Assembly: GCA_945878135.1 (NCBI GenBank)
Contig: CAMDUL010000017.1
Location: 1 to 58,145, forward strand
DNA: 58,145 nt
Direction: 5' to 3'
DNA from: Chthoniobacter flavus
Lineage (GTDB): Bacteria > Verrucomicrobiota > Verrucomicrobiia > Chthoniobacterales > JACTMZ01
Positions 2,202-56,282 of the stretch are shown here, one piece after another. Numbering within the stretch: the first letter of the stretch is position 1; each line of letters begins with the position of its first letter. The translations under genes and the position numbers were made by a program. The notes under the pieces are model-generated. The model worked only from the letters and a program-made list of their open reading frames with translations. It was not told the origin of the DNA and ran no database searches.

Positions 2202-2933
2202 GTGTCATGGGGAGACGCTTATGCTCCCCGCGTGGCGACCCCCAAGATCAAGGACTGGCCGGAGGAGGAGCGGCCGCGGGAGAAGTTGATGCACCGCGGG
2301 GCGGACGCGTTGAGCGATGCGGAGTTGCTGGCCATTTTTCTGCGCACCGGGATACCGGGGCGCACGGCGATCGATGTGGGCGAGGAGATGATCAAGGCGG
2401 CGGGAGGTTCGCTGGCCCGGATGGCGCCGATGACGGTGAAGGAATTGCGCAAACTGGCCAAGGGCGTGGGCTTGGCCAAGGCGTGCGAAATGGCGGCCGC
2501 TTTCGAGCTGGGGAAGCGTCTGGCGCGGCAGACGGCGCAAAGCGAGCCTTTGGGGACGCCGGAGAAAATTCACGCTTTCATGGGCCCGCTCCTGCAGAAT
2601 CTGCCGCGGGAATCGCTGCGCGTCGTGCTGCTCGATACACGGCATCGCTTGCTCCACGCCGAGGAGGTTTCCCTCGGGACGATCAACGAAAGTCTGGCTC
2701 ATCCCCGCGAAATCCTCCGTCCGGCCATCAGCCACGGGGCATATGCCTTCGTGCTGGTGCACAACCATCCGTCGGGCGACCCGACGCCGAGCGAGGCCGA
2801 TCGTGCACTGACCCGCCGCATCCGCGAAGCGGCGGATTTGGTGCAGATCCACCTCCTCGATCATGTCATTGTCGGCCGCGAGCGCCCCGGCGCACCGCCT
2901 TACTTCAGTTTCAAAGAGCACGGGCTTTTATGA
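2202..2933 (+). CDS. radC: RadC family JAB/MPN-domain protein
   Basis: RadC-family protein with an N-terminal helix-hairpin-helix region (LSDAELLAIFLRTG, then a KGVGLAKA loop) and a C-terminal JAB1/MPN metalloprotease-like domain. The zinc signature HNHPSGDPTPSEAD fits the JAMM pattern HxHPSGx(n)SxxD. The family is historically named for DNA repair, but its biochemical role is unresolved. The frame opens at a GTG at 2202. A second GTG at 2232 would begin the protein just before KIKDWPEEERPRE, where family members usually start, so it may be the true start. The stop codon abuts an inverted-repeat element. Confidence 0.93.
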   Translation: MSWGDAYAPRVATPKIKDWPEEERPREKLMHRGADALSDAELLAIFLRTGIPGRTAIDVGEEMIKAAGGSLARMAPMTVKELRKLAKGVGLAKACEMAAAFELGKRLARQTAQSEPLGTPEKIHAFMGPLLQNLPRESLRVVLLDTRHRLLHAEEVSLGTINESLAHPREILRPAISHGAYAFVLVHNHPSGDPTPSEADRALTRRIREAADLVQIHLLDHVIVGRERPGAPPYFSFKEHGLL

Positions 2934-3036
2934 GTTGAGGGTTGAGGGTTGAAAGTTGAGGGGGGAGCAGAGGATGATGCATAAACGGAGTGGCGGCCTG
3001 CCTTTTCACCCAGCCCTCATCCCTCGACTCTCGACT
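2933..3036. repeat. Imperfect long inverted repeat (type E)
   Basis: The left arm at 2933-2955 is built from tandem copies of the word gttgagg. The right arm at 3014-3036 (ccctcgactctcgact) is its imperfect reverse complement. The element fills the gap between radC and lpxA and begins on the last base of the radC stop codon. Confidence 0.6.
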
Positions 3037-3041
3037 TCTCC

Positions 3042-3845
3042 ATGAACATCCACCCTACCGCGATCGTGGCCGACGGGGCCAAGTTGGCTGATGGCGTGAC
3101 CGTCGGGCCGTTTTCGATCATCGGTCCGGAGGTGGAGATCGGGAGCGGTTGCACCATCGGGGCGCATGTGATTCTGGAACACCGTGTGGTGATCGGAGAG
3201 GGAACGAAAGTCGGGCACGGGACGATTCTCGGAGGCAATCCCCAAGCGCTGGGCTTCGATCAAGCGCGCCGTGACACCGGCGTGCGCATCGGGAAAAACA
3301 ACACGATCCGCGAGTATGTGACGATCAACCGCGCCACCGCGGAGAACAGCGACACGGTGGTGGGCGACGGCAATTTTCTCATGACCGGATGCCATCTGGC
3401 CCACGATTGCCGGATCGGCAACGGGGTGATCTTGGCCAACACGGTGCTGATGGCCGGCCATGTGGAGGTGGATGACGGGGCTTTCCTCGGTGGCGGCTCG
3501 GTGTTTCACCAGTTCATCCGCATCGGCCGGCTGTCCATGGTGCGGGGCGGTTGCCGGTTCAGCAAAGATATCCCGCCCTATTGCGTGGGGGCCGGGACCA
3601 ACCTGGCCATGGGTCTCAATTCCATTGGTTTGCGGCGGGCGGGCCTGTCCGCCGAGGCGCGAATGCAATTGAAGCGGGCCTTCCGGCTGCTTTATCTGTC
3701 CAACTTCAATGTGACCCAGGCGCTCGACGAGGCGGCCAAGGAAAATTGGGGTCCGGAGGCGACGTTATTTTTCGACTTCGTGCGCGGGGCGAAGAAGAAG
3801 GGGATTTGCGATTACTCGGGGAAAGAACTCGGGGCGGACGAGTGA
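3042..3845 (+). CDS. lpxA: Acyl-ACP--UDP-N-acetylglucosamine O-acyltransferase
   Basis: LpxA catalyses the first step of lipid A synthesis, transferring a 3-hydroxyacyl chain from ACP to UDP-GlcNAc in the cytoplasm. The first ~190 residues are a left-handed beta-helix of hexapeptide repeats (IHPTAIV, GVTVGPFSIIG, IGSGCTIGAHV, ...). The catalytic histidine sits in HLAHDC (His121). The C-terminal helical region (LYLSNFNVTQALDEA) is typical of the family. The length of 267 residues is standard. No lpxB or lpxD lies next to it, unlike the proteobacterial cluster. It supports a Gram-negative envelope with lipid A. Confidence 0.97.
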   Translation: MNIHPTAIVADGAKLADGVTVGPFSIIGPEVEIGSGCTIGAHVILEHRVVIGEGTKVGHGTILGGNPQALGFDQARRDTGVRIGKNNTIREYVTINRATAENSDTVVGDGNFLMTGCHLAHDCRIGNGVILANTVLMAGHVEVDDGAFLGGGSVFHQFIRIGRLSMVRGGCRFSKDIPPYCVGAGTNLAMGLNSIGLRRAGLSAEARMQLKRAFRLLYLSNFNVTQALDEAAKENWGPEATLFFDFVRGAKKKGICDYSGKELGADE

Positions 3846-3854
3846 AAGTCCGTC

Positions 3855-4475: not shown

Positions 4476-4500
4476 CCGACGGACATAGTCCGCCGCTACA
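4476..4500. repeat. Dispersed hairpin repeat, type C, single arm
   Basis: This 25-nt word (ccgacggacatagtccgccg and onward) contains a small hairpin GGAC-ATA-GTCC and ends in ccgccgctaca. It matches the reverse complement of 31102-31126 at 23 of 25 positions, and the two differences are paired in the hairpin. It lies in the spacer between gyrA and the toxin-antitoxin pair. Confidence 0.65.
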
Positions 4501-8680: not shown

Positions 8681-9676
8681 GTGAACGGCAAAGAGTTCCG
8701 CCAACGCCTGTGCGCCTGGTTCCGGCGGCACGGACGCGACCTGCCGTGGCGGCGGACGCGGGATCCTTACGCGATCGTGGTCAGCGAAATGATGCTGCAG
8801 CAGACGACGGTCGCGGCGGTCGTTCCCTATTTCGAGAGATGGATGAAGCGGTTTCCCTCGGTGCATGAACTTGCCGCCGCCGATGAGTCCGAAGTGTTGG
8901 CCCTGTGGCAGGGGCTCGGCTACTACCGCCGCGCGCGGAATTTGCACGCGGCCGCGACGAAAGTCGGGGGGGGATTGGACGGGGTGTTTCCGAGGGATTA
9001 CGATGGACTGCGTGATTTGCCCGGGGTCGGGGACTACACGGCACAAGCGGTGCGTGCTTTTGCTTTCGACGAGTCGGTTCCGGTGCTCGATGCCAATGTG
9101 ATCCGGGTGGTGGCTCGGTTGTTCGACATCCGAACGCCGGTTGATACGGCGAAGGGTTTGGCCAAAGTGCGTGGCAAGCTGGAGGAACTGCTGCCGGCCA
9201 AAGGCGGACATGAATTTGCCTCCGCCCTGATGGAACTCGGGGCGCTGGTTTGCCGCGCGGGGCGGCCGGATTGTTTGCTCTGTCCGGTCAAGGAGTTCTG
9301 CGCGGCGAAGCATCCCGAGAAACTGCCGGTCAAAGCGCCGAAGGCGCCGATCAAGGAACGGACCGAGCGGGCGGCGTGGATCTCGGATGGCGAGACCGTC
9401 CTTCTCCAGCAGTCCACCGCCCGGCGCTGGGTCGGATTGTGGCGTTTGCCGCCGTTGGATGGCGAACCGCTGGCCGGTCCGGCGGCGGAGCTGACCTACA
9501 GTATCGTGCGGGAACGGGTAACCTTGCGGATCCACCGCACGGCCAAGCGGGCCCTGATGGCGTCCGCGGAACCACGCAGGGCGTTTTCTCTTAGGGAGCT
9601 GGAAAGCATAGCCATTCCGTCCCCGCACCGCCGGGCGATTGCCAAAGTTTTAAAAGACAGATTTGACCACGGATAA
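8681..9676 (+). CDS. mutY: A/G-specific adenine glycosylase
   Basis: MutY removes adenine mispaired with 8-oxoguanine. Catalytic Glu36 (SEMMLQQT) and Asp137 (PVLDANV) of the HhH-GPD domain are present, with the hairpin LPGVGDYTA at 113-121. The [4Fe-4S] cluster ligands are Cys191, Cys198, Cys201 and Cys207, in exact C-x6-C-x2-C-x5-C spacing. A NUDIX-like 8-oxoG-recognition domain follows from about 225 (WISDGETVLLQQS...WVGLWRLPP). It starts with GTG at 8681. The final codons and stop fall within an inverted-repeat element that begins at 9667. Confidence 0.95.
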   Translation: MNGKEFRQRLCAWFRRHGRDLPWRRTRDPYAIVVSEMMLQQTTVAAVVPYFERWMKRFPSVHELAAADESEVLALWQGLGYYRRARNLHAAATKVGGGLDGVFPRDYDGLRDLPGVGDYTAQAVRAFAFDESVPVLDANVIRVVARLFDIRTPVDTAKGLAKVRGKLEELLPAKGGHEFASALMELGALVCRAGRPDCLLCPVKEFCAAKHPEKLPVKAPKAPIKERTERAAWISDGETVLLQQSTARRWVGLWRLPPLDGEPLAGPAAELTYSIVRERVTLRIHRTAKRALMASAEPRRAFSLRELESIAIPSPHRRAIAKVLKDRFDHG

Positions 9677-9751
9677 CACAGATGACACTGATTTACGGAG
9701 GACGTTCGGGACACCGTTTCTGATCATCCGTGCTATCCGTGCCATCCGTGG
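9667..9751. repeat. Imperfect inverted repeat (type B)
   Basis: The left arm at 9667-9692 begins ccacggataacacagatgac. The right arm at 9723-9751 ends ccgtgccatccgtgg and is its imperfect complement. Each arm is built from repeats of the word cacggat. The element overlaps the mutY stop codon and ends 13 bp before trpB. A half copy starts right after the trpB stop. Confidence 0.65.
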
Positions 9752-9764: not shown

Positions 9765-10975
9765 ATGAGCGCCACCATCACCAGCCAACCCGACGCCACC
9801 GGCCACTTCGGTCCGTATGGCGGAATCTTCGTGCCCGAGACGCTGATGACGGCGCTCGAGGAATTGACACACGCTTACGAGGCAGCGCGGAAGGATCCGG
9901 AATTCCGGCGGGAATTGAACCAGCTTCTGGCCGAGTTTGTCGGACGTCCGACGCCGCTTTATCTGGCCGAACGCCTCACCGCGCAGCTGGGTGGAGCGAA
10001 AATTTATCTCAAGCGCGAGGACTTGGTCCATACCGGCGCGCACAAGATCAACAACGCGATGGGTCAGATCATTCTCGCCCGCCGCATGGGGAAGAAGCGC
10101 GTCATTGCCGAAACGGCGCCGGTCAGCACGGCGTGGCCACGGCAACGGCGGCTGCGCGCTTCGGCATGGAATGCGTGGTCTACATGGGCGAGGTGGACAT
10201 GAAGCGCCAGGCGCTCAATGTCACCCGCATGAAATTCCTCGGCGCCAAAGTCGTGCCGGTCACGGCTGGCCAAGCCACACTCAAGGAAGCGGTCAACGAA
10301 GCGATGCGCGATTGGGTGACCAATGTGCGTTCGACCCACTACATTCTCGGCACGGCTTACGGCGCGCATCCGTATCCCATGATGGTGCGCAACTTCCACC
10401 GCGTGATCGGCGAGGAGTCGCGCCGCCAGATTCTCGAACGCGAGGAGCGCCTGCCCGATTTGCTCGTGGCATGTGTCGGCGGCGGGAGCAATGCGATTGG
10501 ACTTTTCTATCCGTTCCTCGAGGACAAAAACGTCCGCATGGTCGGCGTCGAAGCCGGCGGCGAGGGGATCAAGCCCGGACGCCATGCCGCGCGCTTCCAA
10601 GGAGGCAAGCTCGGCGTGCTGCAAGGGTGCAAAACATTCCTGCTGGCCAATAACGATGGACAGATCGAATTGACCCATTCGGTCTCCGCCGGCCTCGACT
10701 ACGCCGCGGTCGGACCCGAGCACAGTTTCCTGCGCGACGCGGGTCGCGTGGAATACGATTTCGCCACCGACGACGAAGCGCTCGAAGCTTTCAAGACATT
10801 GTCGAAAGTGGAAGGCATCATTCCCGCGCTGGAAAGCGCCCATGGCGTGGCCCACGCAATCAAAGTCGCCCCGAAAATGTCCAGGGATCAGATCATCCTC
10901 GTGAACCTCTCCGGCCGCGGGGACAAAGACGTCCAGCAGGCGGCGGAGTTTGTTTTCGGGAGAGTGGGAATTTAG
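9765..10975 (+). pseudogene. trpB: Tryptophan synthase beta chain, frameshifted
   Basis: TrpB converts indole and serine to tryptophan using PLP. The first part (9765 to about 10115) encodes [12 protein letters not shown], the PLP lysine motif [10 protein letters not shown] and KKRVIAET. The frame then shifts: the expected [15 protein letters not shown] continues only in the next frame, entered at about 10117. The remainder ([20 protein letters not shown] ... GGGSNAIG ... [11 protein letters not shown]) runs intact to a stop at 10975. Restoring one G at 10115-10116 (acggcgcc to acgggcgcc) rebuilds a full beta chain of about 403 residues. Either this is a real disrupting deletion or a base-calling error in a GGG run. 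No trpA is adjacent. Confidence 0.93.
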
Positions 10976-10998
10976 CCACGGATAGCGGAGGATAAATG
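10976..10998. repeat. Half copy of type B repeat
   Basis: The stretch begins ccacggatagcggaggat directly after the trpB stop codon and resembles the left arm of the element upstream of trpB. No clear second arm was found. Confidence 0.4.
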
Positions 10999-11058
10999 GC
11001 CAGGATCCGATAAGGCCCGCTGACACGGGACTTGTCAAAATGTATTCGGATGCTGTTG

Positions 11059-11080
11059 TTCGCCGGTGTCAGCCGGCGAA
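11059..11080. other. Perfect hairpin in trpB-polB spacer
   Basis: An 8-bp stem (ttcgccgg / ccggcgaa) encloses a 6-nt loop. It is followed on the plus strand by aaaac rather than a T-run, so it is not a classical intrinsic terminator. It could slow RNA decay or be another hairpin repeat. Confidence 0.4.
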
Positions 11081-11108
11081 AAACATCCTCTGATACCTTC
11101 TTTTATCT

Positions 11109-13298
11109 GTGGCTAAAACGTCTTCGCTCTCCTCCGTCGAACACGATCCCGTTCTTTTCGGTGCGGATGCGAGCGAGGGCATCATCGCTGTCGAGTTTGT
11201 CGCGCCTGACCGCATCCATATTTACCGGCGGGCGGGGAACAAGACGGTCTCCGAGGAAGTGGCGCACAAGCCTTTCGCTTGGGCCACGGAGCCGTTGCCG
11301 GGCGATGCGCGGGAGTTGGCGGGCAAGAACGCGTTCCGGTTTACTGTTGCTTTCGATGGCGCGGCGGAGTTTTCCAAAGCAAAAGCCACTTACAAAAGGG
11401 AGCTCTTCGCGCTGAATGACCTTGCGCATCAATATTTGCTGCAGAGCGGGCGAACGCTGTTCAAAGGGATGGCCTTCGAAGACCTGCGGCGGATGCAGGT
11501 CGATATTGAAACTTTCACCCCAGCGCACGGCGCCATGTCCGACGCGGGCAAAGATCCGCTTTTGGCCATCGCGCTGAGCGATAGTTCGGGGTGGGAGGAC
11601 ATCCTGGTTGTCGAGGATCCCGGCGACGAGGCGCAGGAAAGGGCTGTCTTGGAAAAATTCGTCACGCTGGTGCGCGAGCGTGATCCGGATGTGATCGAGG
11701 GGCACAACATTTTCAAATTCGACCTGGCCTATCTCGAAACGCGGGCGCGGAAGCTGAAGATGAAACTCGAGCTTGGGCGTGACGGCAGCGCATTGCGCTC
11801 GCATCCCTCGCGTTTGCAAATCGCCGAGCGGCTCATCCAATACCGCAAGTTCGAGATTCATGGACGGCACATCGTCGACACGCTGTTTCTCGTCCAATTC
11901 CACGATGTCGGGACGCGGGAATTGGAGAGCTTCGGACTCAAAGCGGCAGCGCGGCATTTCGGCGTAGCCGAAGATGACCGGGTGGAGTTGGGCGCGCGCG
12001 AAATCACCGAAGCGCACGCGAAGAAGCGGAAGACTTTCGTTCAATACGCCCTGCAAGACGTGCGCGAGACGCGGGGGTTGTCCGCCGCCTTGAGTCCGGC
12101 GTGGTTCACCCAGACGACAATTTTTCCCTACAACTACCAGGATGTGGTCATCCGCGGGAATGCGACGAAGATCAATAGTCTGTTTCTGCGGGAATACTTG
12201 CGTCAGGGTCAGTCGGTTCCGTGTTTGTCCGAGGTGCAGAGGTTCGAGGGCGGATACACGGATATCTTTTTCACCGGGGTGGCGCGCGACGTGTGGCATT
12301 GCGACATCGCATCCTTGTATCCGTCGGTCATGCTGGCTTTTGGGATTTTCCCGGATTCCGATACGCTCGGCGTTTTCGGCGACATGCTCGCGCGGTTGCG
12401 GAAGTTCCGGCTGGACGCGAAGGCGGCCATGCGTTCGGCCGAGGGGGCGCAGAAGGCGCACCTCGATGCGCTGCAGGGGACTTTCAAAATTCTGATCAAT
12501 AGCTTTTATGGGTATCTCGGATTCGCGCAGGGGAACTTCGCCGATTTCGAGGCGGCGGCCGCGGTCACGGCGAAAGGACGCGAGTTGTTGCGGGGGATGG
12601 TGGATTGGCTGCGTCAGCGCGGGGCAGATGTCATCGAAATCGACACGGATGGCATCTACTTCACGCCGCCGAAGGATGCGACTTGGGATGGGCTTTATCG
12701 CGAACTGGCGGCGACTTTGCCCGCGGGAATCGAGGTGGAATTCGATGCGCGGTATGCCGCGATGTTCAGCTACAAGGCGAAGAATTACGCGCTGCTTTCG
12801 GCGGACGGAAAATTATCGATCAAGGGCGCGGCTTTGAAATCGCGCGGATTGGAAAAATTCCAGCGCGTCTTTATCGAGCGCGCGGTGCGGGCATTGCTCG
12901 AGGGCGAGCCGGAGGTGATCCCGTCCATGCACGCGGAGTTCGCCAAGGCGCTAAGGGAAAGGAGGTGGGAACCGGAGATGTTTGCCAAGACCGAGGCGCT
13001 GCAGGACTCGCTCGAGGCTTACCAAAAGAAGATTGCCGCTTCATCGCGCAACCGCTCGGCGGCTTTCGAGATTGCCCTGCGCAGCGGACGCAAGATGCAG
13101 GCCGGCGATCGCGTGTCTTATTACATCACGGGGACGAAAAAGACGGTAAAGGCTTATGAGAGCGCGAAGCTGGTTGATGATTGGGACCCAAAGAACCGCG
13201 ATGAGAACACCCCTTACTATCTGGCCAAGCTCGACGAGTTGGCGGGCAAGTTCGAGGCGTTCGTCCCTGCCAGCGCGGGCGGGGACCGGTTGTTGTAG
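11109..13298 (+). CDS. Family B DNA polymerase with 3'-5' exonuclease
   Basis: The 729-residue protein has all core family B motifs. Exo I is VDIETF (Asp132, Glu134), Exo II is GHNIFKFD (Asn200-Asp205), and Exo III is YALQD (Tyr313, Asp317). Polymerase motif A is CDIASLYPS (Asp399), motif B is KILINSFYG (460-467), and motif C is IDTDGIYF (Asp512, Asp514). Motif C has DTDG where most members have DTDS. All catalytic acids are present, so both activities are expected. It is shorter than E. coli Pol II (about 780). The start is GTG at 11109. Its cellular role, whether repair, bypass or element-borne replication, is not shown by the neighbours. Confidence 0.9.
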   Translation: MAKTSSLSSVEHDPVLFGADASEGIIAVEFVAPDRIHIYRRAGNKTVSEEVAHKPFAWATEPLPGDARELAGKNAFRFTVAFDGAAEFSKAKATYKRELFALNDLAHQYLLQSGRTLFKGMAFEDLRRMQVDIETFTPAHGAMSDAGKDPLLAIALSDSSGWEDILVVEDPGDEAQERAVLEKFVTLVRERDPDVIEGHNIFKFDLAYLETRARKLKMKLELGRDGSALRSHPSRLQIAERLIQYRKFEIHGRHIVDTLFLVQFHDVGTRELESFGLKAAARHFGVAEDDRVELGAREITEAHAKKRKTFVQYALQDVRETRGLSAALSPAWFTQTTIFPYNYQDVVIRGNATKINSLFLREYLRQGQSVPCLSEVQRFEGGYTDIFFTGVARDVWHCDIASLYPSVMLAFGIFPDSDTLGVFGDMLARLRKFRLDAKAAMRSAEGAQKAHLDALQGTFKILINSFYGYLGFAQGNFADFEAAAAVTAKGRELLRGMVDWLRQRGADVIEIDTDGIYFTPPKDATWDGLYRELAATLPAGIEVEFDARYAAMFSYKAKNYALLSADGKLSIKGAALKSRGLEKFQRVFIERAVRALLEGEPEVIPSMHAEFAKALRERRWEPEMFAKTEALQDSLEAYQKKIAASSRNRSAAFEIALRSGRKMQAGDRVSYYITGTKKTVKAYESAKLVDDWDPKNRDENTPYYLAKLDELAGKFEAFVPASAGGDRLL

Positions 13299-13355
13299 CG
13301 GGGATCGGGAAACCGCAGGGGACGCAGAGGACGCGGAGGGGAAATGTCTTTTCTT

Positions 13356-13434
13356 GGAGGGCGAGCGTCCTCGCGAGCCGCGGAGCTGATTGGAGCAACG
13401 CGTGTGCAGCGGCGGCCGAGGACGGCCGCCCTCC
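13356..13434. repeat. Inverted pair of hairpin arms (type F)
   Basis: The left arm, 13356-13380 (ggagggcgagcgtcctcg...), and the right arm, 13410-13434, are inverted relatives with 20 of 25 matching positions. The right arm contains a perfect 8-bp hairpin, ggcggccg-agga-cggccgcc, at 13411-13430. The left arm has a weaker internal hairpin. The element lies between the convergent polymerase and toxin genes and could end transcription from either side. Confidence 0.6.
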
Positions 13435-14034: not shown

Positions 14035-14059
14035 CGGCGACCGAGGACGTCCGCCTTCC
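14035..14059. repeat. Single arm of type F hairpin repeat
   Basis: The reverse complement of this stretch (ggaaggcggacgtcctcgg...) matches the type F right arm at 13410-13434 in 22 of 25 positions. No inverted partner is nearby, so it is a solitary arm. Confidence 0.5.
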
Positions 14060-15493: not shown

Positions 15494-15500
15494 GAAGAAG

Positions 15501-15606
15501 TGTTCAGTTTTCGGTGTTCAGTGTTTGGTGAAATCGGTGGGGAACGGACGTCGCCGGGAACGGCGACGCCACAGGACTGAAAACTGAACCACTGAACACC
15601 GAAAAC
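15501..15606. repeat. Inverted repeat with nested tip hairpin (type A, copy 1)
   Basis: Perfect 17-bp arms lie at 15507-15523 (gttttcggtgttcagtg) and 15590-15606. Between them is a perfect 8-bp hairpin, cgtcgccg-ggaa-cggcgacg, at 15549-15568. The word ttcagttttc recurs inside. Similar elements lie at 23411-23506 and 38946-39028. Confidence 0.7.
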
Positions 15607-15615
15607 TCCGCCGCC

Positions 15616-23375: not shown

Positions 23376-23410
23376 CCGCGCCTCAGGCGCGGAGTTGGCG
23401 GTGGTCCGTG

Positions 23411-23506
23411 ATTCAGTTTTCAGTCCGAGGGGCTTCGTTCGGTAACGCGGGGACGTGCCAGGTTGTCGCCACGCTCTGACCGCTGAAAACTGTAAACTGG
23501 AAACTC
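23411..23506. repeat. Inverted repeat (type A, copy 2)
   Basis: The arms are cagttttcag at 23414-23423 and its exact complement ctgaaaactg at 23483-23492, with looser pairing outside. The word set is the same as at 15501-15606 and 38946-39028. The element lies between two convergent genes. Confidence 0.55.
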
Positions 23507-30440: not shown

Positions 30441-30487
30441 CATCGGCATCCTGCCGATGACGTCGCATGGTCGAGGGCAGGATGCCC
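30441..30487. repeat. Inverted pair of hairpin arms (type G)
   Basis: Exact 11-bp arms lie at 30445-30455 (ggcatcctgcc) and 30476-30486. Each arm also folds on itself: catcggca-tcc-tgccgatg on the left and gggca-tcc-tgccc (in inverse) on the right. One stem pair swaps from C-G to G-C between arms. The element lies between convergent genes. Confidence 0.55.
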
Positions 30488-30493
30488 GTGGAG

Positions 30494-31093: not shown

Positions 31094-31101
31094 GTTTGTG
31101 T

Positions 31102-31167
31102 TGTAGCGGCGGTCTATGACCGTCGGTGCTTTAGAGAAGAAATGTTCCGGAGGTCATAGACCGCCGC
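31102..31167. repeat. Inverted pair of hairpin arms (type C, copy 2)
   Basis: Perfect 16-bp arms lie at 31106-31121 (gcggcggtctatgacc) and 31152-31167, separated by 30 nt. Each arm contains a GGTC-ATA-GACC mini-hairpin. Its outer word is shared, inverted, with 4476-4500. The element lies between msrB and msrA. Confidence 0.7.
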
Positions 31168-31179
31168 AAGCGTGAGATA

Positions 31180-31698: not shown

Positions 31699-31735
31699 GG
31701 GGGCAATATCCGGCGGACGGGGTGGATTGTCAAAA

Positions 31736-31798
31736 AGTAGAAGCGGCGTCCCCGCCGCTTAACCCCGGACGACAAGCGGCGGGGACGCCGCTTCTACT
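31736..31798. repeat. Inverted repeat with perfect 25-bp arms (type D, copy 1)
   Basis: The arms at 31736-31760 and 31774-31798 are perfect complements (agtagaagcggcgtcc...), with a 13-nt loop. Each arm also contains the hairpin AAGCGGCG-TCCC-CGCCGCTT. The same 25-nt arm sequence recurs at 56222-56282. It lies in the 207-bp spacer upstream of msrB. Confidence 0.8.
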
Positions 31799-31905
31799 CT
31801 TCCGAACCGCCGCCGCGAAGGCTTCACTGAACATTGAGCCCGGTTCCTTCGCGGAAGTCTCCTGATTGTTCCGTTCGCGGACAAATTCCTGCTGCACAGT
31901 TACAA

Positions 31906-33972: not shown

Positions 33973-34066
33973 GGCAGCCGGCCAGTTTCCCGCCCCCGCC
34001 GCCTGAAAACAAGAGAAAGGCGAGGTGCCCGTTGCCGGACAGGGAGGCTGTGTTAGGGTGGAGGTC

Positions 34067-35485: not shown

Positions 35486-35509
35486 GCGCCCCGGCGAAGT
35501 TGGCGGCTA

Positions 35510-37408: not shown

Positions 37409-37503
37409 GGAAAGGCAGGGGAAAATTAGCGGGCCGGGCGCGCTGGCGGAAGGTTTTCGTCCGTCTCTCTTTCGGCGTGCAGCCGGCGCCCGGCGGAGGC
37501 TTA

Positions 37504-37866
37504 ATGAAGCCGGTGAAAGAACCGAAAGTTTACCGCGACCCGGACCGCACGAAAATCCTCTGGTTGGGAATCCTCGTGGCCGTGGTCGTGCTGGCGGCCA
37601 TCGTGCTGGCCACCATGTCGCTCAACCGGACGATGAAAAGCACGGGAGCATTCACCGGAAAAATCATCGCCAAGGAATTCACGCCGGAACCGGCGCAGGA
37701 GATCACGGTGGGTCAGGGCGGTCTGCACAGCACGCGGGTGGAGGGGGAATACAAGCTGCAGGTCGAGACGCCCGACGGCGCCAAGGTTTTCAACGTGTGG
37801 GTCGACCGGACGGTTTACGAGGAGTCCGAGGTCGGTGACGACTATTACGTGATCCCGTCGCCATGA
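37504..37866 (+). CDS. Small single-pass membrane protein, unknown function
   Basis: The 120-residue protein has a short basic N-terminus (MKPVKEPKVYRDPDRTK), one transmembrane helix (ILWLGILVAVVVLAAIVLA) and an exported or cytoplasmic beta-rich tail (STGAFTGKIIAKEFTPEP ... KVFNVWVDRTVYEESEVGDDYYVIP). The frame extends upstream, but the ATG at 37504 fits the hydropathy. It stands before the MoxR/Bat operon, 82 bp upstream, and diverges from the fusion gene. I do not recognise the family. Confidence 0.7.
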   Translation: MKPVKEPKVYRDPDRTKILWLGILVAVVVLAAIVLATMSLNRTMKSTGAFTGKIIAKEFTPEPAQEITVGQGGLHSTRVEGEYKLQVETPDGAKVFNVWVDRTVYEESEVGDDYYVIPSP

Positions 37867-37948
37867 GGGTGCGGCGGAAATCGAACATCCGGCGCGTCGT
37901 GCTGTCTCATGTGAAAGCGGCGCTTTTCGCCCCCGGCCCGAAATTTTT

Positions 37949-38938: not shown

Positions 38939-38945
38939 ACAAAGT

Positions 38946-39028
38946 GTTCAGTTTTCAGCGGTTCAGTGTCCGGTCGGCCATGACGGGGCGGGGCACTTTC
39001 TCCAAACTGAAAACTGAAGACTGAAAAC
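38946..39028. repeat. Inverted repeat inside the MoxR/Bat operon (type A, copy 3)
   Basis: Exact 12-bp arms lie at 38947-38958 (ttcagttttcag) and 39007-39018, with further pairing to 39028. It lies between the moxR and DUF58 genes within a single-direction operon, so it is transcribed and could fold in the mRNA. Confidence 0.6.
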
Positions 39029-39037
39029 TTTCCTCTT

Positions 39038-39925: not shown

Positions 39926-39926
39926 C

Positions 39927-40448
39927 ATGCCTCCCGCCGACCCCAACACCGACCTGCTGCCCCACGAGATCGCGGGGCCCGTGTGGTATCTGCCTTATCC
40001 GTTGCCGGTCATGATCGCTTTCGGCCTGCTCGCCCTGCTCCTTCTCGCGCTGGCCGTTTGGGCTTTCGTCGCCTGGCGGCGCCGGGTCAACCGGCGTCCG
40101 CTGACCGCACGCGAAAAAGCCCTGTCCGCCCTGGCCGCGGCGCGGGGTCGTGCCGACCAAGCCGCTCCTTACGAATTCAGCATCGAGGTGTGCGACATCC
40201 TGCGCGGCTTCCTCGGCACCGAGCACCACCTGCCGGCCACCACCCAGACGTCCTACGAGTTTCTGCAGACCGCGCGCGGCAGCGGGGTGTTCGACGAGGC
40301 GCGGTTGGGCGGGCTGACCCGGTTTCTCGACAAGGCGGACGCCATCAAATTCGCCCGCGCGGACGCCACCGCGGCCGACAACAACGAACTGACCGGATTG
40401 GCCGAGGAACTGGTCAAGGAGGGGCAAAAGCATGCCGTCGCTGCCTGA
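39927..40448 (+). CDS. DUF4381-like membrane protein of the Bat operon
   Basis: The 173-residue protein begins with a polar stretch (PNTDLLPHEIAGPVWYLPYP), then one transmembrane helix (VMIAFGLLALLLLALAVWAFVAW). A cytoplasmic helical domain follows (TAREKALSALAAARGRADQAAPYEFSIEVCDILRGFL...). This is the DUF4381 layout found between DUF58 and BatA genes. It overlaps batA by 17 nt, indicating translational coupling. Confidence 0.8.
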   Translation: MPPADPNTDLLPHEIAGPVWYLPYPLPVMIAFGLLALLLLALAVWAFVAWRRRVNRRPLTAREKALSALAAARGRADQAAPYEFSIEVCDILRGFLGTEHHLPATTQTSYEFLQTARGSGVFDEARLGGLTRFLDKADAIKFARADATAADNNELTGLAEELVKEGQKHAVAA

Positions 40449-41454
40449 CTTTTCCGGGTTGTCTTTCGCGCAGCCGCAGTTTCTCTGGCTGCTCTTGCTC
40501 GTGCCGTTCCTCGCGTGGCTCAAGGGCAAGTTCGGCGGCACGCCGGGTGTGCTTTTTTCCACCACCAAGACCGTGGCCAAAATCGGCGGACGCCGCCGCT
40601 CGCGCGCCGGGGATTTTCTCACCGGCCTGCTTTACCTCGCGCTCATCAGTCTCATCGTCGCGCTGGCCCGTCCGCAGGAGGGCAAGACGATCACGCGCAC
40701 GCAGGCCAGCGGGGTGGATATCATGCTGGTCATCGACGTCTCGCGTTCCATGCTGGCCGAGGATTTCACCATCGGCGGACAACGGGCCAACCGGCTCGAA
40801 GCGGTCAAGCAGGTGACCGAAACGTTCATCCGCGAACGTCCCAACGACCGCATCGGCATCGTCGCCTTCGCCGGCCGGCCGTATCTGGTCAGTCCGCTCA
40901 CCCTCGACCACGATTGGTTGCGCCAGAATCTCGAGCGCACCCGCATCGGCCTGGTCGAAGACGGCACGGCGATCGGTTCCGCGTTGGCCGCGGCCTCGAA
41001 CCGCCTGAAAGACAAGGAGTCCAAATCCAAACTCGTCGTCCTGCTGACCGACGGCGACAACAACATGGGCCGGGTCAGCCCGGCCACCGCGGCCGAAGCC
41101 GCGCAGGCCCTGGGCATCAAGGTCTACACCATCGGATCGGGCAGCCGCGGAAATGCGCCGTATCCGGTGGGTGACGCCTTCGGACGGACCGTCTACCGCC
41201 AGATCCCGGTGGAATTCGACGAGGAAATCCTCAAGCAGATCGCGGCCACCACCGGCGGATCCTATTTCCGCGCCACGGACACGCAGTCGCTGCAGGGGAT
41301 TTTCAGCGAGATCGACGAATTGGAAAAATCCGAGGTCGAGATCCAGAAAGTGGAGCAATACAAAGACCTTTTCCCGTGGTTCGTGCTGGCCGGAGCCGTC
41401 TTGCTCGCGGCCGAAACCGTGCTTGGTCAAACAATATGGAGACGTCTGCCCTGA
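40432..41454 (+). CDS. batA: BatA-like VWA-domain membrane protein
   Basis: The 340-residue protein has two N-terminal transmembrane helices (FLWLLLLVPFLAWL; GDFLTGLLYLALISLIVALA), then a von Willebrand A domain with a complete MIDAS start, VIDVSRSM. The supporting Thr and Asp residues are in KSKLVVLLTDGDNNMG. A final helix (WFVLAGAVLLAAETVL) anchors the C-terminus. It is typical Bacteroides aerotolerance protein BatA. The last 19 nt overlap the next gene. Confidence 0.93.
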   Translation: MPSLPDFSGLSFAQPQFLWLLLLVPFLAWLKGKFGGTPGVLFSTTKTVAKIGGRRRSRAGDFLTGLLYLALISLIVALARPQEGKTITRTQASGVDIMLVIDVSRSMLAEDFTIGGQRANRLEAVKQVTETFIRERPNDRIGIVAFAGRPYLVSPLTLDHDWLRQNLERTRIGLVEDGTAIGSALAAASNRLKDKESKSKLVVLLTDGDNNMGRVSPATAAEAAQALGIKVYTIGSGSRGNAPYPVGDAFGRTVYRQIPVEFDEEILKQIAATTGGSYFRATDTQSLQGIFSEIDELEKSEVEIQKVEQYKDLFPWFVLAGAVLLAAETVLGQTIWRRLP

Positions 41455-43790
41455 GTTTCGGACAGCCCTGGGTGCTGAACTTCCTCTGGCTCCTTGTGCC
41501 GGTCGCCGCCCTCTTCTGGTGGGCCGAGCGACGGCGCCGGGCCCTCATCGGGCGGATCGTCGCGCCGAAGTTGCGCGCCATCCTGGCGGGGAACACCAGT
41601 CCTTTCCGCCGGATTTTCCGGGGCGCCTGCGTCGTCGCCGCCCTCGCCCTGCTCGTGGTGGCCTTGGCCGAGCCGCGGCTTGGCTATGACACTCTCGAGG
41701 TTCCCCACCGCGGGCGCGACGTGGTCATTGCCATGGACGTCTCGCGTTCCATGATGGCCACCGATGTGGCGCCGACCCGGCTGCAGCGGGCCAAGCTGCT
41801 GGCCGAGGACCTGGTCTCGGAGCTGGGGGGCGATCGCATCGGTCTGGTCGCCTTTGCGGGCTCCGCCTTCCTCCAGGCGCCGCTGACCCTCGACCACGGC
41901 GCGGTGCTGTCCGCCCTCGACGAACTCGACACCGACCTCATACCCAAGGGGGGCACCAACCTCGCCGCGGCCATCCGCGCGAGCGGGGAAGCTTTCACCA
42001 AGGCCGAGGGATTTTCCCGTGCCATCATCATCATTTCGGACGGCGAGGAACTCGATGCCGATGGTCTGGCCGCCGCGCGCGACGCGGCGGCCGATGGTGT
42101 CCGTATTTTCACCGTCGGTGTCGGTTCCGCCGAGGGATCGGAAATCCCCCTTGCTCCGGGCGAATTCGTGCGCGACCCGTCGGGCAAGGTGGTGCAATCG
42201 AAGCTCGATGCCGCGCGCATGAAAGAAATCGCGGAAGCCACCGGCGGGTTCTACACGCCGCTCGACGAGCAGGCGGCGCGGTTGCTCGCCGCGGAAGGAA
42301 TCGGCAAGATGGCGGAGTCGGAGATCGACACGGAGAGCTCGCGCCGTCCCATCGAGCGTTACCAGTTGCCCCTCGGTGCTGCCATCGCGCTGCTCGTGCT
42401 GCAAGCGCTGGTCGGTGAACGCCGGCGCGTGCCGTTCGGTGCGGCCGCCGCGCTGTGGCTGGCGGCCGCGGCGCCGTCACAAGCCTCGGGGATTGCCGCT
42501 TATGAACAGGGCAATTACGAGCAGGCCCGGCAGGAATTCGAAAACCGTCTCAAGATGGAACCGGAGGCTCCGAATCTGCAACTCAACGCCGGGGCCGCGG
42601 CCTACCGCCTGAAAGACTACGGCAAGGCCTCGCAGTATTTTTCCAAAGCCATGCTGGCCGAAGATCCCGCCTTGCGCTCGGCCGCGGAATTCAACCTCGG
42701 CAACACGCTCTTCCGTCAGGGCGAGGGCCAGGAGGACAAGGAAAAAAAGGTGTCCGACTGGAAAGACGCCATCGCGCAATACGAAGCCGCGCTCAAGACG
42801 AGGCCCGACTACTCCGAGGCCTGGGAGAACAAGGAACGGGTCGAGCAACTTCTCGAGGAGTTGGAGAAAGAGCAGAAGCAGGACAAAAAACAGGACCAGA
42901 AAAAGGATCAGCAAAAACAGGACCAGCAGCAGAAAGATCAACAGCAGCAGGGGGGCGAGCAGGACCAGAAACAAGACCAACAGCAGGGTGACAAGGACCA
43001 GCCGCAGCAGCAGGGTGGTGGCGGCAAGGATCAGGAGAAAAAAGACCAGCAGGGCGGACAAGAGCAGAAAGAGCCTTCAGGAGACGGAGGCAAGGACCAG
43101 AAGGATCAGCAGGGGCAGTCGAAAGACGAGCAAAAGCAGGACGGCCAAGGCGGGGAGCAGAAGCAGGACCAGCAAGGGGGCGGCCAGGACAAAGAACAGC
43201 AGGACGGACAGCAGGGCGAGAAAGACGAAAAGCAGCAGGGAGGACAGGGCGAACAAAAACAGGACCAAAAAGGTGGCGGGCAACCGGAAGATCAGCAGCA
43301 AAAAGGCGCAGGGGAAAAGCCGGACGAACAAAAGCAGGACGGCCAAGGCGGGGAGCAGAAGCAGGATCAACCGGGCGGTCAGGACGAGAAGAAACAGGAC
43401 GGAGAGCAGGGCGAGAAAGATGAACAGCAGCAGAGCGGACAAGGCCAACAACCGCAGGATCGCGGCGAAAGCGGCGAAGAGAAAAGCGAGCAGGGATCAC
43501 CTTCCGGTCCCGGCGATCGCGAGCAAAAGCAGGGCGCCGGAAAACCGGGTGATGCGCCCGCGCCGGCCCCGACGCCGTCCGGTCCGAAGAAGGAAGGCGA
43601 ATTGCGCGGCACCGCAGGCCAGCAGGATGAGAAGGGCGAGGAAGCGATGGGCTACTCCGACGCACCCAACGAAGACGGCAGCATGAGCGAGGGACAGGCC
43701 CGCTCCCTCCTGCGCGCCTTGCAGGGCGAGGAGGAAAAGGTCGATCTTCTCGAACGTCGGGCCTTTCAGGATGTCTCAAGGGATTGGTAG
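41436..43790 (+). CDS. BatB-BatC-like fusion: VWA, TPR and long Q/K/D/G-rich tail
   Basis: The 784-residue protein joins a BatB-like VWA domain (two N-terminal helices, MIDAS AMDVSRSM, ISDGEELD) with a membrane helix near 315-335 and a TPR region at about 345-470 (AYEQGNYEQARQEFENRLKMEP and onward), as in BatC. Residues about 475-738 are an extreme low-complexity stretch of Gln, Lys, Asp, Gly and Glu. A conserved end (ARSLLRALQGEEEKVDLLERR) follows, as in BatC proteins. DNA in the tail shows near-identical direct repeats, for example 43126-43168 and 43324-43366. The ATG at 41436 overlaps batA by 19 nt. Confidence 0.9.
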   Translation: METSALSFGQPWVLNFLWLLVPVAALFWWAERRRRALIGRIVAPKLRAILAGNTSPFRRIFRGACVVAALALLVVALAEPRLGYDTLEVPHRGRDVVIAMDVSRSMMATDVAPTRLQRAKLLAEDLVSELGGDRIGLVAFAGSAFLQAPLTLDHGAVLSALDELDTDLIPKGGTNLAAAIRASGEAFTKAEGFSRAIIIISDGEELDADGLAAARDAAADGVRIFTVGVGSAEGSEIPLAPGEFVRDPSGKVVQSKLDAARMKEIAEATGGFYTPLDEQAARLLAAEGIGKMAESEIDTESSRRPIERYQLPLGAAIALLVLQALVGERRRVPFGAAAALWLAAAAPSQASGIAAYEQGNYEQARQEFENRLKMEPEAPNLQLNAGAAAYRLKDYGKASQYFSKAMLAEDPALRSAAEFNLGNTLFRQGEGQEDKEKKVSDWKDAIAQYEAALKTRPDYSEAWENKERVEQLLEELEKEQKQDKKQDQKKDQQKQDQQQKDQQQQGGEQDQKQDQQQGDKDQPQQQGGGGKDQEKKDQQGGQEQKEPSGDGGKDQKDQQGQSKDEQKQDGQGGEQKQDQQGGGQDKEQQDGQQGEKDEKQQGGQGEQKQDQKGGGQPEDQQQKGAGEKPDEQKQDGQGGEQKQDQPGGQDEKKQDGEQGEKDEQQQSGQGQQPQDRGESGEEKSEQGSPSGPGDREQKQGAGKPGDAPAPAPTPSGPKKEGELRGTAGQQDEKGEEAMGYSDAPNEDGSMSEGQARSLLRALQGEEEKVDLLERRAFQDVSRDW

Positions 43791-49364: not shown

Positions 49365-49390
49365 GCGGCGGTCACAGACGCGCGCCGCTA
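49365..49390. repeat. Diverged copy of type C repeat
   Basis: The stretch gcggcggtcacagacgcgcg, ending ccgcta, resembles the type C word (ggtcatagaccgccgctaca) at 31152-31167 and 4476-4500. A gcggcg/cgccgc pair is preserved. It lies upstream of mrpA in the divergent spacer. Confidence 0.4.
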
Positions 49391-49513
49391 CAACATGTGG
49401 GGGAACGACCGGCACCGGGGACGGGGCCGCTACATCCAATGCAGTGGTCCGGTGGTCCTTGACTTGCCGCGGCGGTTCCCGCCCAATTCGCGGGTTCCGG
49501 TTCGGACCAATCC

Positions 49514-54606: not shown

Positions 54607-54888
54607 ATGGAAGCTTCTCCCATCCTGATCAGCGCTGCCTGGCTCGCCGGCGGGATTCTCTCCGTCGGCATGGTCCTGGCTTTCATCCGCGTGGTGGCCG
54701 GCCCGACCCTGGCCGACCGCGTGGTGGCCATGGATGCGCTGGCCACCATGATCATCGGGGCCTTGGTCTTGATTTCCATCATCACCGGCACGGCCCTGCT
54801 GCTCGACATCGCGCTGGCCATCGCGCTGGTCGTTTTCCTCGGCACGATCGCCTTGGCCACGACGATCGAAAGGGGGGTTTTCAAATGA
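54607..54888 (+). CDS. mrpF: Mrp Na+/H+ antiporter subunit F
   Basis: The 93-residue protein has three transmembrane helices and the MrpF block FIRVVAGPTLADRVVAMDALATM. An Asp in the central helix (DIALAIALVVFLGTIALA) is typical. Its stop overlaps mrpG by 4 nt. Confidence 0.94.
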   Translation: MEASPILISAAWLAGGILSVGMVLAFIRVVAGPTLADRVVAMDALATMIIGALVLISIITGTALLLDIALAIALVVFLGTIALATTIERGVFK

Positions 54889-55268
54889 GCTGGTTTCTCG
54901 GCGGGCTTCTCCTGGCGGGCGCGTTCCTCATGTTTCTCACCGGCCTCGGTTTGGTGCGTATGCCGGACATTTTCTGCCGCATGCATGCGGCGACGAAAAG
55001 CGCGTCGCTCGGGGTGGCCCTGCTGCTGTTGGCTTCCGCTCTGTTTTTCCAGGAGACGATGGTTGTGACAAAGGCCCTGGTCACGATCGGGTTCATCTTC
55101 CTGACTGCACCGGTGGCGGCGAGCCTGCTCGGACGCGCGGCCTACGCGCAACGCACGTCTTTGTGGGAGCACTCGGTCATGGACGAGGGACGCGACCACA
55201 TCGCGCTCCGGCCGGCCCCCGAAGCCGATCAGGTCGCGCGCAGCAGCCAGAAGAGGAAGCCCGCGTAA
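54885..55268 (+). CDS. mrpG: Mrp Na+/H+ antiporter subunit G
   Basis: The 127-residue subunit has three helices and the diagnostic block GLVRMPDIFCRMHAATKSASLGVALLLL. The last ~20 residues (RPAPEADQVARSSQKRKPA) are a polar tail. Its 3' end overlaps the convergent exchanger gene by 40 nt. It closes the mrpA-G operon. Confidence 0.94.
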   Translation: MSWFLGGLLLAGAFLMFLTGLGLVRMPDIFCRMHAATKSASLGVALLLLASALFFQETMVVTKALVTIGFIFLTAPVAASLLGRAAYAQRTSLWEHSVMDEGRDHIALRPAPEADQVARSSQKRKPA

Positions 55269-56179
55269 CCCAGCAGCAGACAAGCGCCCGCGGGACGCGT
55301 GATGCGTTGCTGGTAGTAGGCCATGGGCCAGAGAAGGAGGGAGAAGCCGGCCATGACAGCGAGGTCGACCGCGTCGATCCCGGTGGCCTGCAGCGGATGA
55401 ACGATGGCGGTGATGCCGAGGATTCCGACAAGATTGAAAATGTTCGACCCGACGATGTTTCCGACGGCGATGTCGGATTCCTTTTTCACCGCCGCAAGCA
55501 GCGAGGTGGCCAATTCCGGAAGACTTGTGCCGATCGCCACGATGGTGAGGCCGATGAGCGCCTCGCTCCAACCGTAGTTGCGGGCGATGATGACGGCCCC
55601 GTCGACGAGGAAGCGCGCGCCGAAGACCAGGAGAGCGAGTCCGCCGATGACCATGATGATGTCGACAGCCAGCCCGCGCTTGGAAATTTTCACTTCCTCG
55701 CCGAATTCGGTGCCGAGGGCGTCCGCGGGTTGGCGGCGCGCGAGGGCGATGCTGAAGGCGATGTAGGCCACGAGGATCAGGCAGAAAATGATCCCCTCCG
55801 TCCGCCCGATGTTTCCGTCGGCCATCAAGACGAGCGACAGCGCGGTGATGCCGATCATGATGGGGATATCGATGCGCACGATTTGCGAGTTGGTGGTGAT
55901 CGGCGTGATCAACGCGCACAGGCCGAGGATGAGCCCGATGTTGCAAATGTTGGACCCGACCACGTTGCCGACGCTGATATCGCTCTGCCCGGCGAGAGCG
56001 GCGCGGAGGCTGACCATCAATTCGGGCGAACTCGTGCCGAAGGCGACGACGGTGAGTCCGACGACCAGCGGGGAGAGTCCGAGGCGCAGGGCGAGGGAAG
56101 AGCTGCCGCGGACGAGGCCCTCGGCGCCGAAGTAGAGGAGCACGAGCCCGGCGAGGAGATAGATGATGGCAAGGCTCAT
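55229..56179 (-). CDS. CaCA-family calcium/sodium:proton exchanger (YrbG-like)
   Basis: The 316-residue exchanger has ten helices and two inverted alpha-repeats. The first is VVAFGTSSPELMVSLRAALAGQ with GNVVGSNICNIGLILGL, and the second is VAIGTSLPELATSLLAAV with GNIVGSNIFNLVGILG. The Glu residues in the two GTSxPEL blocks bind the cation. The ATG at 56179 follows hydropathy; upstream frame is repeat DNA. The gene converges on mrpG with a 40-nt overlap and diverges from the CbiX-like gene. Confidence 0.93.
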   Translation of the reverse strand: MSLAIIYLLAGLVLLYFGAEGLVRGSSSLALRLGLSPLVVGLTVVAFGTSSPELMVSLRAALAGQSDISVGNVVGSNICNIGLILGLCALITPITTNSQIVRIDIPIMIGITALSLVLMADGNIGRTEGIIFCLILVAYIAFSIALARRQPADALGTEFGEEVKISKRGLAVDIIMVIGGLALLVFGARFLVDGAVIIARNYGWSEALIGLTIVAIGTSLPELATSLLAAVKKESDIAVGNIVGSNIFNLVGILGITAIVHPLQATGIDAVDLAVMAGFSLLLWPMAYYQQRITRPAGACLLLGYAGFLFWLLRAT

Positions 56180-56221
56180 GGGTGAAGCGGGAGTGTTTAT
56201 ACGGGTGCCGAGGGGTAATAA

Positions 56222-56282
56222 AGTAGAAGCGGCGTCCCCGCCGCTTTTTTGATGGTTAAGCGGCGGGGACGCCGCTTCTACT
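56222..56282. repeat. Inverted repeat with perfect 25-bp arms (type D, copy 2)
   Basis: The arms at 56222-56246 and 56258-56282 are perfect complements and identical in sequence to the arms at 31736-31798. Only the loop differs (11 nt here, 13 nt there). The arm hairpin AAGCGGCG-TCCC-CGCCGCTT is kept. It fills most of the divergent spacer and ends 8 bp before the chelatase start. Confidence 0.8.

What the first reader, a model, noticed from the sequence alone, without database searches (positions are those of the whole stretch)
2933..56282. At least seven kinds of REPIN/BIME-like palindromic elements share the spacers of one 58-kb window
Types A to G have different words, yet most share one design: two inverted arms, often each with its own hairpin. 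Type C is at 4476, 31102 and 49365; type D at 31736 and 56222; type A at 15501, 23411 and 38946; type F at 13356 and 14035; type G at 30441; type B at 9667 and 10976; type E at 2933. Paired inverted hairpin words are the definition of REPINs, which are usually mobilised by RAYT transposases, none of which lies here. Several distinct families side by side in so short a stretch is unusual and hints at either several active mobilisers or a structural role for spacer hairpins.
Basis: partly seen in the sequence, partly recalled or inferred. Interest (0 to 1): 0.78.

Follow-up and report, generated by a model that had tools for sequence, protein, structure and literature searches.

The report
REPINs and heptad-armed foldback elements
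The gene gaps of this bacterium hold two different kinds of small inverted repeat: ordinary hairpin repeats, one of which has a matching transposase gene elsewhere in the genome, and a less familiar kind with arms built from repeated 7- or 9-base words, found between genes that overlap in some relatives.

Summary
The repeats are real and at the stated places; all seven word types recur genome-wide above a reversed-pattern control. The window is a whole contig of a 2.64-Mb MAG whose nearest named relatives are Chthoniobacterales. They are not one design. C, D, F and G are tagged hairpin REPs, many paired: REPINs. The genome does have a RAYT, on another contig, flanked by C words, and the C2 spacer is empty in three relatives. 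That part is known biology; several REP families per genome are in print (PMC3733652). A, B and E differ: inverted arms of 7-nt (A, E) or 9-nt (B) direct repeats, no tag, interiors unrelated between copies, outer ends facing gene boundaries. For E and B some relatives have empty sites where the two genes overlap at ATGA, so these look like insertions. No A, B or E word lies next to any of 16 Y1-transposase hits from 11 same-genus genomes. Best reading: foldback-like non-autonomous elements moved by an unidentified enzyme. Whether their hairpins preserve translational coupling is open; evidence is mixed. Families do not cluster beyond chance.

The parts
4476..4500 (-). C1: single REP word of family C (GTAG tag + hairpin)
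   Evidence: 0 mismatches
31101..31168 (.). C2: REPIN of family C, head-to-head pair (31102-31126 + and about 31147-31168 -)
   Evidence: same element in L206; 10-28 nt without it in L200, L201, L204; a G-type REPIN in L203; 61-nt stretch without it in L202; L205 no data
49365..49395 (.). C3: decayed C-like palindrome
   Evidence: not among the 100 of 107 places listed
31736..31798 (.). D1: REPIN of family D (GTAG + AAGCGGCG/TCCC/CGCCGCTT), arms 31736-31760 and 31774-31798
   Evidence: a different REPIN (J words) in the same spacer of L206, none seen by eye in L200, L201, L202, L204
56222..56282 (.). D2: REPIN of family D, arms 56222-56246 and 56258-56282
13356..13434 (.). F1: pair of F words (GGAG tag), 13356-13379 + and 13411-13434 -
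14036..14059 (-). F2: single F word (1 mismatch)
30441..30490 (.). G: inverted pair of GGCATCCTGCC hairpins, 30441-30456 - and 30475-30490 +
   Evidence: GTGG-tagged G-type REPIN in the C2 spacer of L203
2934..3041 (.). E element filling the whole radC-lpxA spacer: left arm 2934-2962 (GTTGAGG heptads), right arm about 3010-3035; lpxA ATG at 3042
9667..9751 (.). B1 element between a mutY-like (HhH-GPD) gene and a trpB-like (PALP) gene: left arm 9667-9694 (CCACGGATNN nonads), right arm 9723-9751; the in-frame stop of the upstream gene lies inside the left arm
10976..11117 (.). B2: arms 10976-10996 and about 11102-11117, more decayed
   Evidence: by eye
15500..15609 (.). A1 element: arms about 15500-15530 and 15574-15609 (AGTTTTC heptads), between an alpha/beta-hydrolase gene and dxs
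15546..15572 (.). REP-like palindrome (GTGG + CGTCGCC/GTTCCC/GGCGACG) between the arms of A1
   Evidence: by eye
23405..23505 (.). A2 element in a convergent spacer (L,D-transpeptidase gene and 23512-25218)
38943..39030 (.). A3 element filling the moxR-DUF58 spacer; heptad arms 38943-38970 and 39003-39030
   Evidence: period-7 or -8 inverted arms in the 7 relatives read

Best explanation
Two kinds of small mobile element share the spacers. (1) C, D, F and G are tagged hairpin REPs, many paired as REPINs; C is, or was, moved by the RAYT on contig C29 whose flanks carry C words (association shown, activity inferred); D, F and G are probably moved, or were, by related RAYTs (inferred). (2) A, B and E are short foldback-like insertions: inverted arms made of 7-nt (A, E) or 9-nt (B) direct repeats around an interior that differs from locus to locus. 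They entered gene junctions, including overlapping stop/start pairs (empty sites seen for E and B, not for A), probably moved in trans by an unidentified enzyme that recognises the arms (inferred). In several copies the arms can fold into a hairpin that reaches from the end of one gene to a few nt before the next start codon, which may make such insertions tolerable to the host (hypothesis).
For: REP part: genome-wide excess; among 100 of 107 C words, 25 head-to-head pairs at 44-64 nt, 9 tail-to-tail pairs all at 39 nt, 32 unpaired; RAYT L002 with HLH and YVRTNPV motifs, NF047646 over its cut-off, C words on both sides, and a second C-flanked Y1 gene in G002 (L319); C2 filled in the window and L206, empty in L200, L201, L204, a G-type REPIN in L203. 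Foldback part: local lag-7, lag-14 and lag-9 self-matches in 6, 5 and 3 of 240 spacers against 0.3, 0.1 and 0.15 in shuffles (3 of the 6 lag-7 spacers lie in the window; lag 6 also 3 against 0.35); outer end nearer the gene boundary it faces in 39 of 50 A, E and B arms, p=9e-5 (15 of 21, 13 of 15, 11 of 14); outer boundary is a START in 28 of 35 A and B arms against 22 of 58 C and D arms, Fisher p=9.5e-5, E 8 of 15; interiors unrelated, 1 of 36 pairs at p<0.05; radC and lpxA overlap at ATGA without E in G003, G004, G008 and the C18 copy of G000, and E is present in G000 (window), G001, G002, G005, G006, G010, decayed in G007 (the upstream gene is radC by tblastn); mutY-like and trpB-like genes overlap at ATGA in G008, B1 is present in G000, G010 and G004; E left arm 90-100% identical among five genomes while fourfold sites of radC are 57-84% identical.
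Against: No enzyme for A, B, E was found. C copy number does not follow the RAYT: C words G004 119, G000 107, G005 70, G010 14, G002 11, G006 8, G001 5, G003 1, G009 1, G007 0, G008 0, while a C-flanked Y1 gene was found only in G000 and G002 (incomplete MAGs). No Y1 gene directly flanked by D, F or G words was found; the nearest is a D pair about 1 kb from the Y1 gene of L313. A3 has no empty site among 7 relatives, and A1 and A2 were not recovered in relatives. Many A, B and E copies are single arms. The conserved part is uneven: E interior 52-78%, right arm 38-82%; A3 left arm 45-91% between distinct lineages of A-word genomes. The hairpin is not strictly kept: z -0.5 and -1.8 for E in G001 and G002, -1.1 for A3 in L202, -1.4 and -1.3 for B1 in G010 and G004 (both typed without the part of the left arm inside the upstream gene); covariation is slight (2 of 14 and 2 of 34 pairs). 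The MAG holds two radC-lpxA regions (C17 and C18), so one contig may be foreign to it.
Confidence: 0.7

Rival explanations
1. All seven types are REPINs; A, B and E are divergent REPINs whose RAYTs are missing from these assemblies.
For: Paired inverted repeats forming a hairpin are the REPIN layout (PMC3116915, passages read); the MAGs are fragmented and several C words lie within 70 nt of contig ends.
Against: Arms of A, B and E lack a tag and a hairpin per arm and are built of 7- or 9-nt direct repeats; no A, B or E word directly flanks any of 16 Y1 hits (one A word lies about 0.7 kb from the Y1 gene of L319); A and B face start codons more often than C and D.
Confidence: 0.13
2. A, B and E are terminal-repeat families of TIR-flanked Y1 transposases (TIRYTs) such as L001.
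For: L001, L313 and L316 have GGGGTCA inverted ends (GGGGWSAS class of PMC3733652), and two of the three contain a doubled heptamer, (TTGACAT)2 and (TTCTTGC)2.
Against: A, B and E lack GGGGTCA, and none of these ends carries their words; the L001 end has no further copy in the loci held.
Confidence: 0.15
3. A, B and E are cis-acting regulatory or translational elements kept by selection, not mobile DNA.
For: 17 of 28 A and B arms that face a START lie within 30 nt of it; the E left arm and an AGGATGAT stretch are nearly invariant in six genomes, and from that ATG a short frame ends in a TGA overlapping the lpxA ATG in G000 and G002 or runs in frame into lpxA in G001 and G005, though it stops early in G006 and G010.
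Against: Empty orthologous junctions, different words in the same spacer of relatives, and a copy in a convergent spacer.
Confidence: 0.13
4. Chance or compositional words of a G+C-rich genome.
For: Half of the F and G hits lie inside called genes; E has 7 control hits against 35.
Against: Control counts are 0 to 3 for the other six types; inverted pairs recur.
Confidence: 0.02

Closest known systems
GTAG-tagged REPs and REPINs with RAYTs (PMC3733652, PMC3116915)
   Same: C, D: GTAG tag, short hairpin, head-to-head and (C) tail-to-tail pairs, mostly in spacers; C: Y1 gene flanked by the same words, site empty in relatives. Coexisting REP families are reported for Opitutus terrae and others (PMC3733652, section 5).
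   Different: F has GGAG and G a GTGG-like tag; no directly flanked RAYT found for D, F, G; A, B and E do not fit.
TIRYT transposases with GGGGWSAS terminal repeats (PMC3733652, section 16)
   Same: L001, L313 and L316 match this class; two of their ends include a doubled heptamer.
   Different: Their terminal words are not A, B or E.
Foldback elements of eukaryotes (recalled, no call)
   Same: Inverted arms built of short direct repeats around a variable middle.
   Different: Here about 100 nt, in bacterial gene junctions, no enzyme known.
Heptamer STRR repeats of cyanobacteria (recalled) and small dispersed repeats (named in a passage of PMC3116915)
   Same: 7-nt direct repeats in spacers (recalled).
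   Different: Inverted two-arm layout, orientation towards gene boundaries.

Membership tests
REPIN / GTAG REP (types C, D) | GTAG-type tag followed by a short hairpin | tested here: met
REPIN / GTAG REP (types C, D) | inverted pairs at a preferred distance | tested here: met
   C: 25 HH and 9 TT pairs among 100 of 107 words; D1 and D2 pairs in the window; D distances genome-wide not tabulated
REPIN / GTAG REP (type C) | RAYT gene with the same words in its flanks | tested here: met
   L002 and L319; NF047646 was run on L002 only
REPIN / GTAG REP (types D, F, G) | RAYT gene with the same words in its flanks | tested here: not met
   16 Y1 loci of 11 incomplete genomes: no F or G word, one D pair about 1 kb from the Y1 gene of L313
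REPIN / GTAG REP (type C) | insertion polymorphism between relatives | tested here: met
   C2 spacer
REPIN / GTAG REP (types F, G) | GTAG-type tag | tested here: inconclusive
   F: GGAG; G: GTGG in L203, unclear in the window
REPIN / GTAG REP (types A, B, E) | tag and hairpin in each arm | tested here: not met
   arms are 7- or 9-nt direct repeats
REPIN / GTAG REP (types A, B, E) | cognate RAYT | tested here: not met
   no B or E word in the 16 Y1 loci, one A word about 0.7 kb from the gene of L319; genomes incomplete
Foldback-like element (types A, B, E) | inverted arms of short direct repeats with variable interior | tested here: met
   two-armed copies; many copies are single arms
Foldback-like element (types B, E) | empty orthologous sites | tested here: met
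   B rests on one genome, G008
Foldback-like element (type A) | empty orthologous sites | tested here: inconclusive
   A3 filled in the 7 relatives read; A1 and A2 spacers not recovered in relatives
Foldback-like element | transposase acting on the arms | not testable with these tools
   needs complete genomes or biochemistry

The most novel reading that the evidence does not exclude
A class of bacterial foldback elements with heptad or nonad arms inserts at overlapping stop/start junctions; its hairpin closes the new gap so that the stop codon and the next start codon stay close enough for termination-reinitiation, and the words can be exchanged in place (A words in L200 against AGTTTTA-type words in L202 at moxR-DUF58, although moxR is 98% identical; other inverted words at radC-lpxA in G013) while the layout stays.
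Probability: 0.18. Interest if true: 0.75.

Novelty: new variant of a known kind. Interest (0 to 1): 0.5.

Why it matters
It separates ordinary REPINs from a second kind of tiny insertion in Verrucomicrobiota for which the searches made here found no description, and shows such insertions at junctions where genes overlap in relatives. Published reporters lose translational coupling when about 20 nt separate the genes (PMC10666635, abstract), so a 100-nt insertion that can fold back on itself is a natural test of how gene pairs survive mobile DNA.

Tried and rejected
Rfam: no match in the window at gathering score. tRNA-linked repeats: no tRNA. Plasmid relatives of D1: none. Global autocorrelation of spacers was too weak to use; a local lag test was used instead. 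First gene calls were wrong on strand in several places and were retrained. Clustering of families beyond chance: not supported. C copy number following the RAYT: not supported. A words phylum-wide: 105 of 115 genomes have a match; strongest excess G122 (50 vs 1), G000 (27 vs 3), G061 (25 vs 4), G117 (19 vs 2), G037 (17 vs 1), G063 (15 vs 0), many others have low counts; no loci outside the genus were read, so whether those are elements is open. Literature: searches listed no paper on heptad-armed spacer elements in Verrucomicrobiota (two of these searches returned nothing at all); the library lacks most subscription journals. When checking the draft, a word scan of the 16 Y1 loci showed an A word and a D pair at about 0.7 and 1 kb from two Y1 genes, which I had missed by eye; the statements on flanks were narrowed.

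Papers: PMC3733652 abstract, sections 5 and 16 and passages; PMC3116915 passages; PMC10666635 abstract; PMC8266576 abstract; PMC6728339 search listing only.
Full report
Where it is. The window is the whole contig C17 (58,145 bp) of a 56-contig, 2.64-Mb MAG, 90.7% complete, G+C 63.5%. The best seven matches of its polyphosphate kinase in named genomes are Verrucomicrobia/Chthoniobacterales MAGs at 84-92% identity (L200-L206); the next match has 55%.

The observation. Genome-wide counts exceed the reversed-pattern control for every type: C 107/0, D 34/0, A 27/3, B 24/1, E 35/7, F 14/2, G 22/0. In an unbiased word count over 458 kb (window plus 20 stretches) words of C and D lead the list of over-represented 12-mers; A, B, E, F and G are low-copy there. 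Half of the F and G hits lie inside called genes and may be chance.

Two designs. C, D, F and G are a tag (GTAG, GTAG, GGAG, GTGG-like) plus a hairpin. C words pair head-to-head at 44-64 nt (25 pairs) or tail-to-tail at exactly 39 nt (9 pairs) among 100 of 107 places. A, B and E have arms of direct repeats of period 7 (AGTTTTC; GTTGAGG) or 9 (ATCCGTGNN). A local lag test on 240 spacers finds lags 7, 14 and 9 in 6, 5 and 3 spacers against 0.3, 0.1 and 0.15 in shuffles, and lag 6 in 3 against 0.35; 3 of the 6 lag-7 spacers are in the window, and two others show a further heptad word (GTCACTC). In relatives 6 of 69 spacers have lag 7 against 0.05, but 4 of the 6 are orthologues of A3; AACGAAGG arms appear in the G spacer of three relatives.

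Mobilisers. PF01797 finds two Y1 transposases in the genome. L002 (159 aa, contig C29) passes NF047646, REP-associated tyrosine transposase, at 105.2 bits against a cut-off of 80, has HLH and YVRTNPV motifs, and C words on both flanks. L001 (361 aa; 55.8 bits, below the cut-off) has GGGGTCAC inverted ends and fits the TIRYT class of PMC3733652. In the genus 6 of 11 genomes have 16 hits. Flanks were printed for 13 of the 16 (two of these genes fill their locus, and two loci are cut by contig ends), and all 16 loci, 49.9 kb, were scanned for the words: C words flank L002 and L319 (G002); J words flank L321 and L323 and occur once in L312 and L320; an A word lies about 0.7 kb from the gene of L319 and a D pair about 1 kb from that of L313; no B, E, F or G word occurs. 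One A and one D place in 50 kb is about what their genome-wide density would give. L313 and L316 also have GGGGTCA ends. Against a simple story, C is most abundant in G004 (119) and abundant in G005 (70), where no Y1 gene was found, and scarce in G002 (11), where a C-flanked one was.

Orthologous spacers. Synteny with L200-L206 holds for most genes from 28,954 to 43,790. C2 is shared with L206, including its interior; L200, L201 and L204 have 10-28 nt there, L202 a 61-nt stretch without it, L203 a G-type REPIN. In the D1 spacer L206 has a J-type REPIN. In the G spacer L206 has B arms, L200, L201 and L203 have AACGAAGG arms, L202 neither; the window has an additional open frame there. The A3 spacer (moxR-DUF58) has inverted arms in all seven; in L202 and L203 the words differ (AGTTTTA/ACTTAAA type), although moxR of L202 is 98% identical to that of L200 (fourfold sites 75%).

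Insertions at overlapping genes. At radC-lpxA the C18 copy of G000, G003, G004 and G008 have the two genes overlapping at ATGA; G000 (window), G001, G002, G005, G006 and G010 have the E element between the radC stop and the lpxA ATG; G007 has a decayed one, G009 a short unrelated spacer. Genomes of other families (G026, G016, G012) also overlap at ATGA, and G013 has other inverted words there; the upstream gene is radC-like in all eight checked (46-95% identity) and in G013 (53%). Between the mutY-like and trpB-like genes G008 overlaps at ATGA, whereas G000, G010 and G004 hold B; the upstream stop then lies inside the arm. A1 and A2 spacers were not recovered in relatives.

Position and conservation. 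Of 50 A, E and B arms in called spacers 39 have their outer end nearer to the boundary it faces (p=9e-5), and A and B face a START in 28 of 35 cases against 22 of 58 for C and D; E in 8 of 15. C and D spacers come from 30 of 107 and 30 of 34 hits. The E left arm is 90-100% identical between five genomes while fourfold sites of radC are 57-84% identical; the interior (52-78%) and right arm (38-82%) are not so conserved. At A3, among the six genomes with A words and leaving out the close pair L200/L201, the right arm is 71-93% identical, the left 45-91%, the interior 44-61%, fourfold sites of moxR 52-65%. So arms are constrained or refreshed, unevenly.

Does the hairpin matter? Single-strand folding against 200 block shuffles gives z of -2.7 to -8.4 for 4 of 6 E orthologues but -0.5 and -1.8 for G001 and G002; -2.1 to -6.4 for 7 of 8 A3 orthologues and -1.1 for L202; -4.8, -1.4 and -1.3 for B1 in G000, G010 and G004, the last two typed without part of the left arm. 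Covariation is slight. In G000 the helix of E starts at the first base after the radC stop and ends 6 nt before the lpxA ATG. Since published reporters lose coupling at about 20 nt (PMC10666635 abstract), a closing hairpin could rescue it; this is a hypothesis with mixed support. Alternatively the conserved AGGATGAT of E is a ribosome landing site: from it a short frame ends on the lpxA start (G000, G002) or runs into lpxA (G001, G005), but stops early in G006 and G010.

Clustering. The window has more families than any of 172 other, overlapping 58-kb windows (7 against at most 5), but the patterns came from this window, and C, the largest family, is at its expected number; different families lie within 400 bp of each other 11 times against 6 to 16 expected, depending on the number of spacers assumed. 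The edge-complementarity test, which uses no pattern, found A1 and A3 in the window and no A-type spacer in the other 400 kb, so some real local excess of two-armed elements is not excluded. A structural role of clustering is not supported.

Caveat. Contig C18 of the same MAG carries a second radC-lpxA region, 93-95% identical in DNA to that of G004. One of the two contigs may be foreign to the genome, so 'own genome' statements across contigs carry that doubt.

Verdict. REPIN part: known kind, new members. Heptad/nonad part: real, with empty sites for B and E, enzyme unknown, a new variant of the small foldback/MITE kind as far as the searches made here show.

Noticed in passing
G000:C18 (L019, L308) and window 2202-3845: Contig C18 of the same MAG carries a second radC-lpxA region, 93-95% identical in DNA to that of species G004 and lacking the E element: a foreign contig in the bin or a recent transfer.
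   Followed up: partly
window 9765-10975: The trpB-like gene reads as two overlapping frames in the window; by tblastn positions the two parts lie in one frame in G010, G004 and G008, so a broken gene or an assembly error.
   Followed up: no
window 42874-43459: Gln/Lys/Asp-rich repetitive coding stretch in a gene of the moxR-DUF58 neighbourhood (direct repeats D1 and D2).
   Followed up: no
window 13313-13343: Nonad word GACGCAGAG, another period-9 type beside F1.
   Followed up: no
L321, L323 (genomes G010, G002): Y1 genes flanked by J words GTGGATCGCG; by eye D, F, J and the REP inside A1 share a GTCCC-like core with different stems, perhaps one superfamily with exchanged stems.
   Followed up: partly
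G000:C40 6853-11815: Three near-identical B-type stretches (CATCAGTGACATCGGTGAAA.CCGTGGT) on one 12-kb contig.
   Followed up: no
genome G122, contig C2 7614-7774: A more distant genome of the phylum with 50 A-word hits (control 1), some in regularly spaced direct arrays.
   Followed up: no
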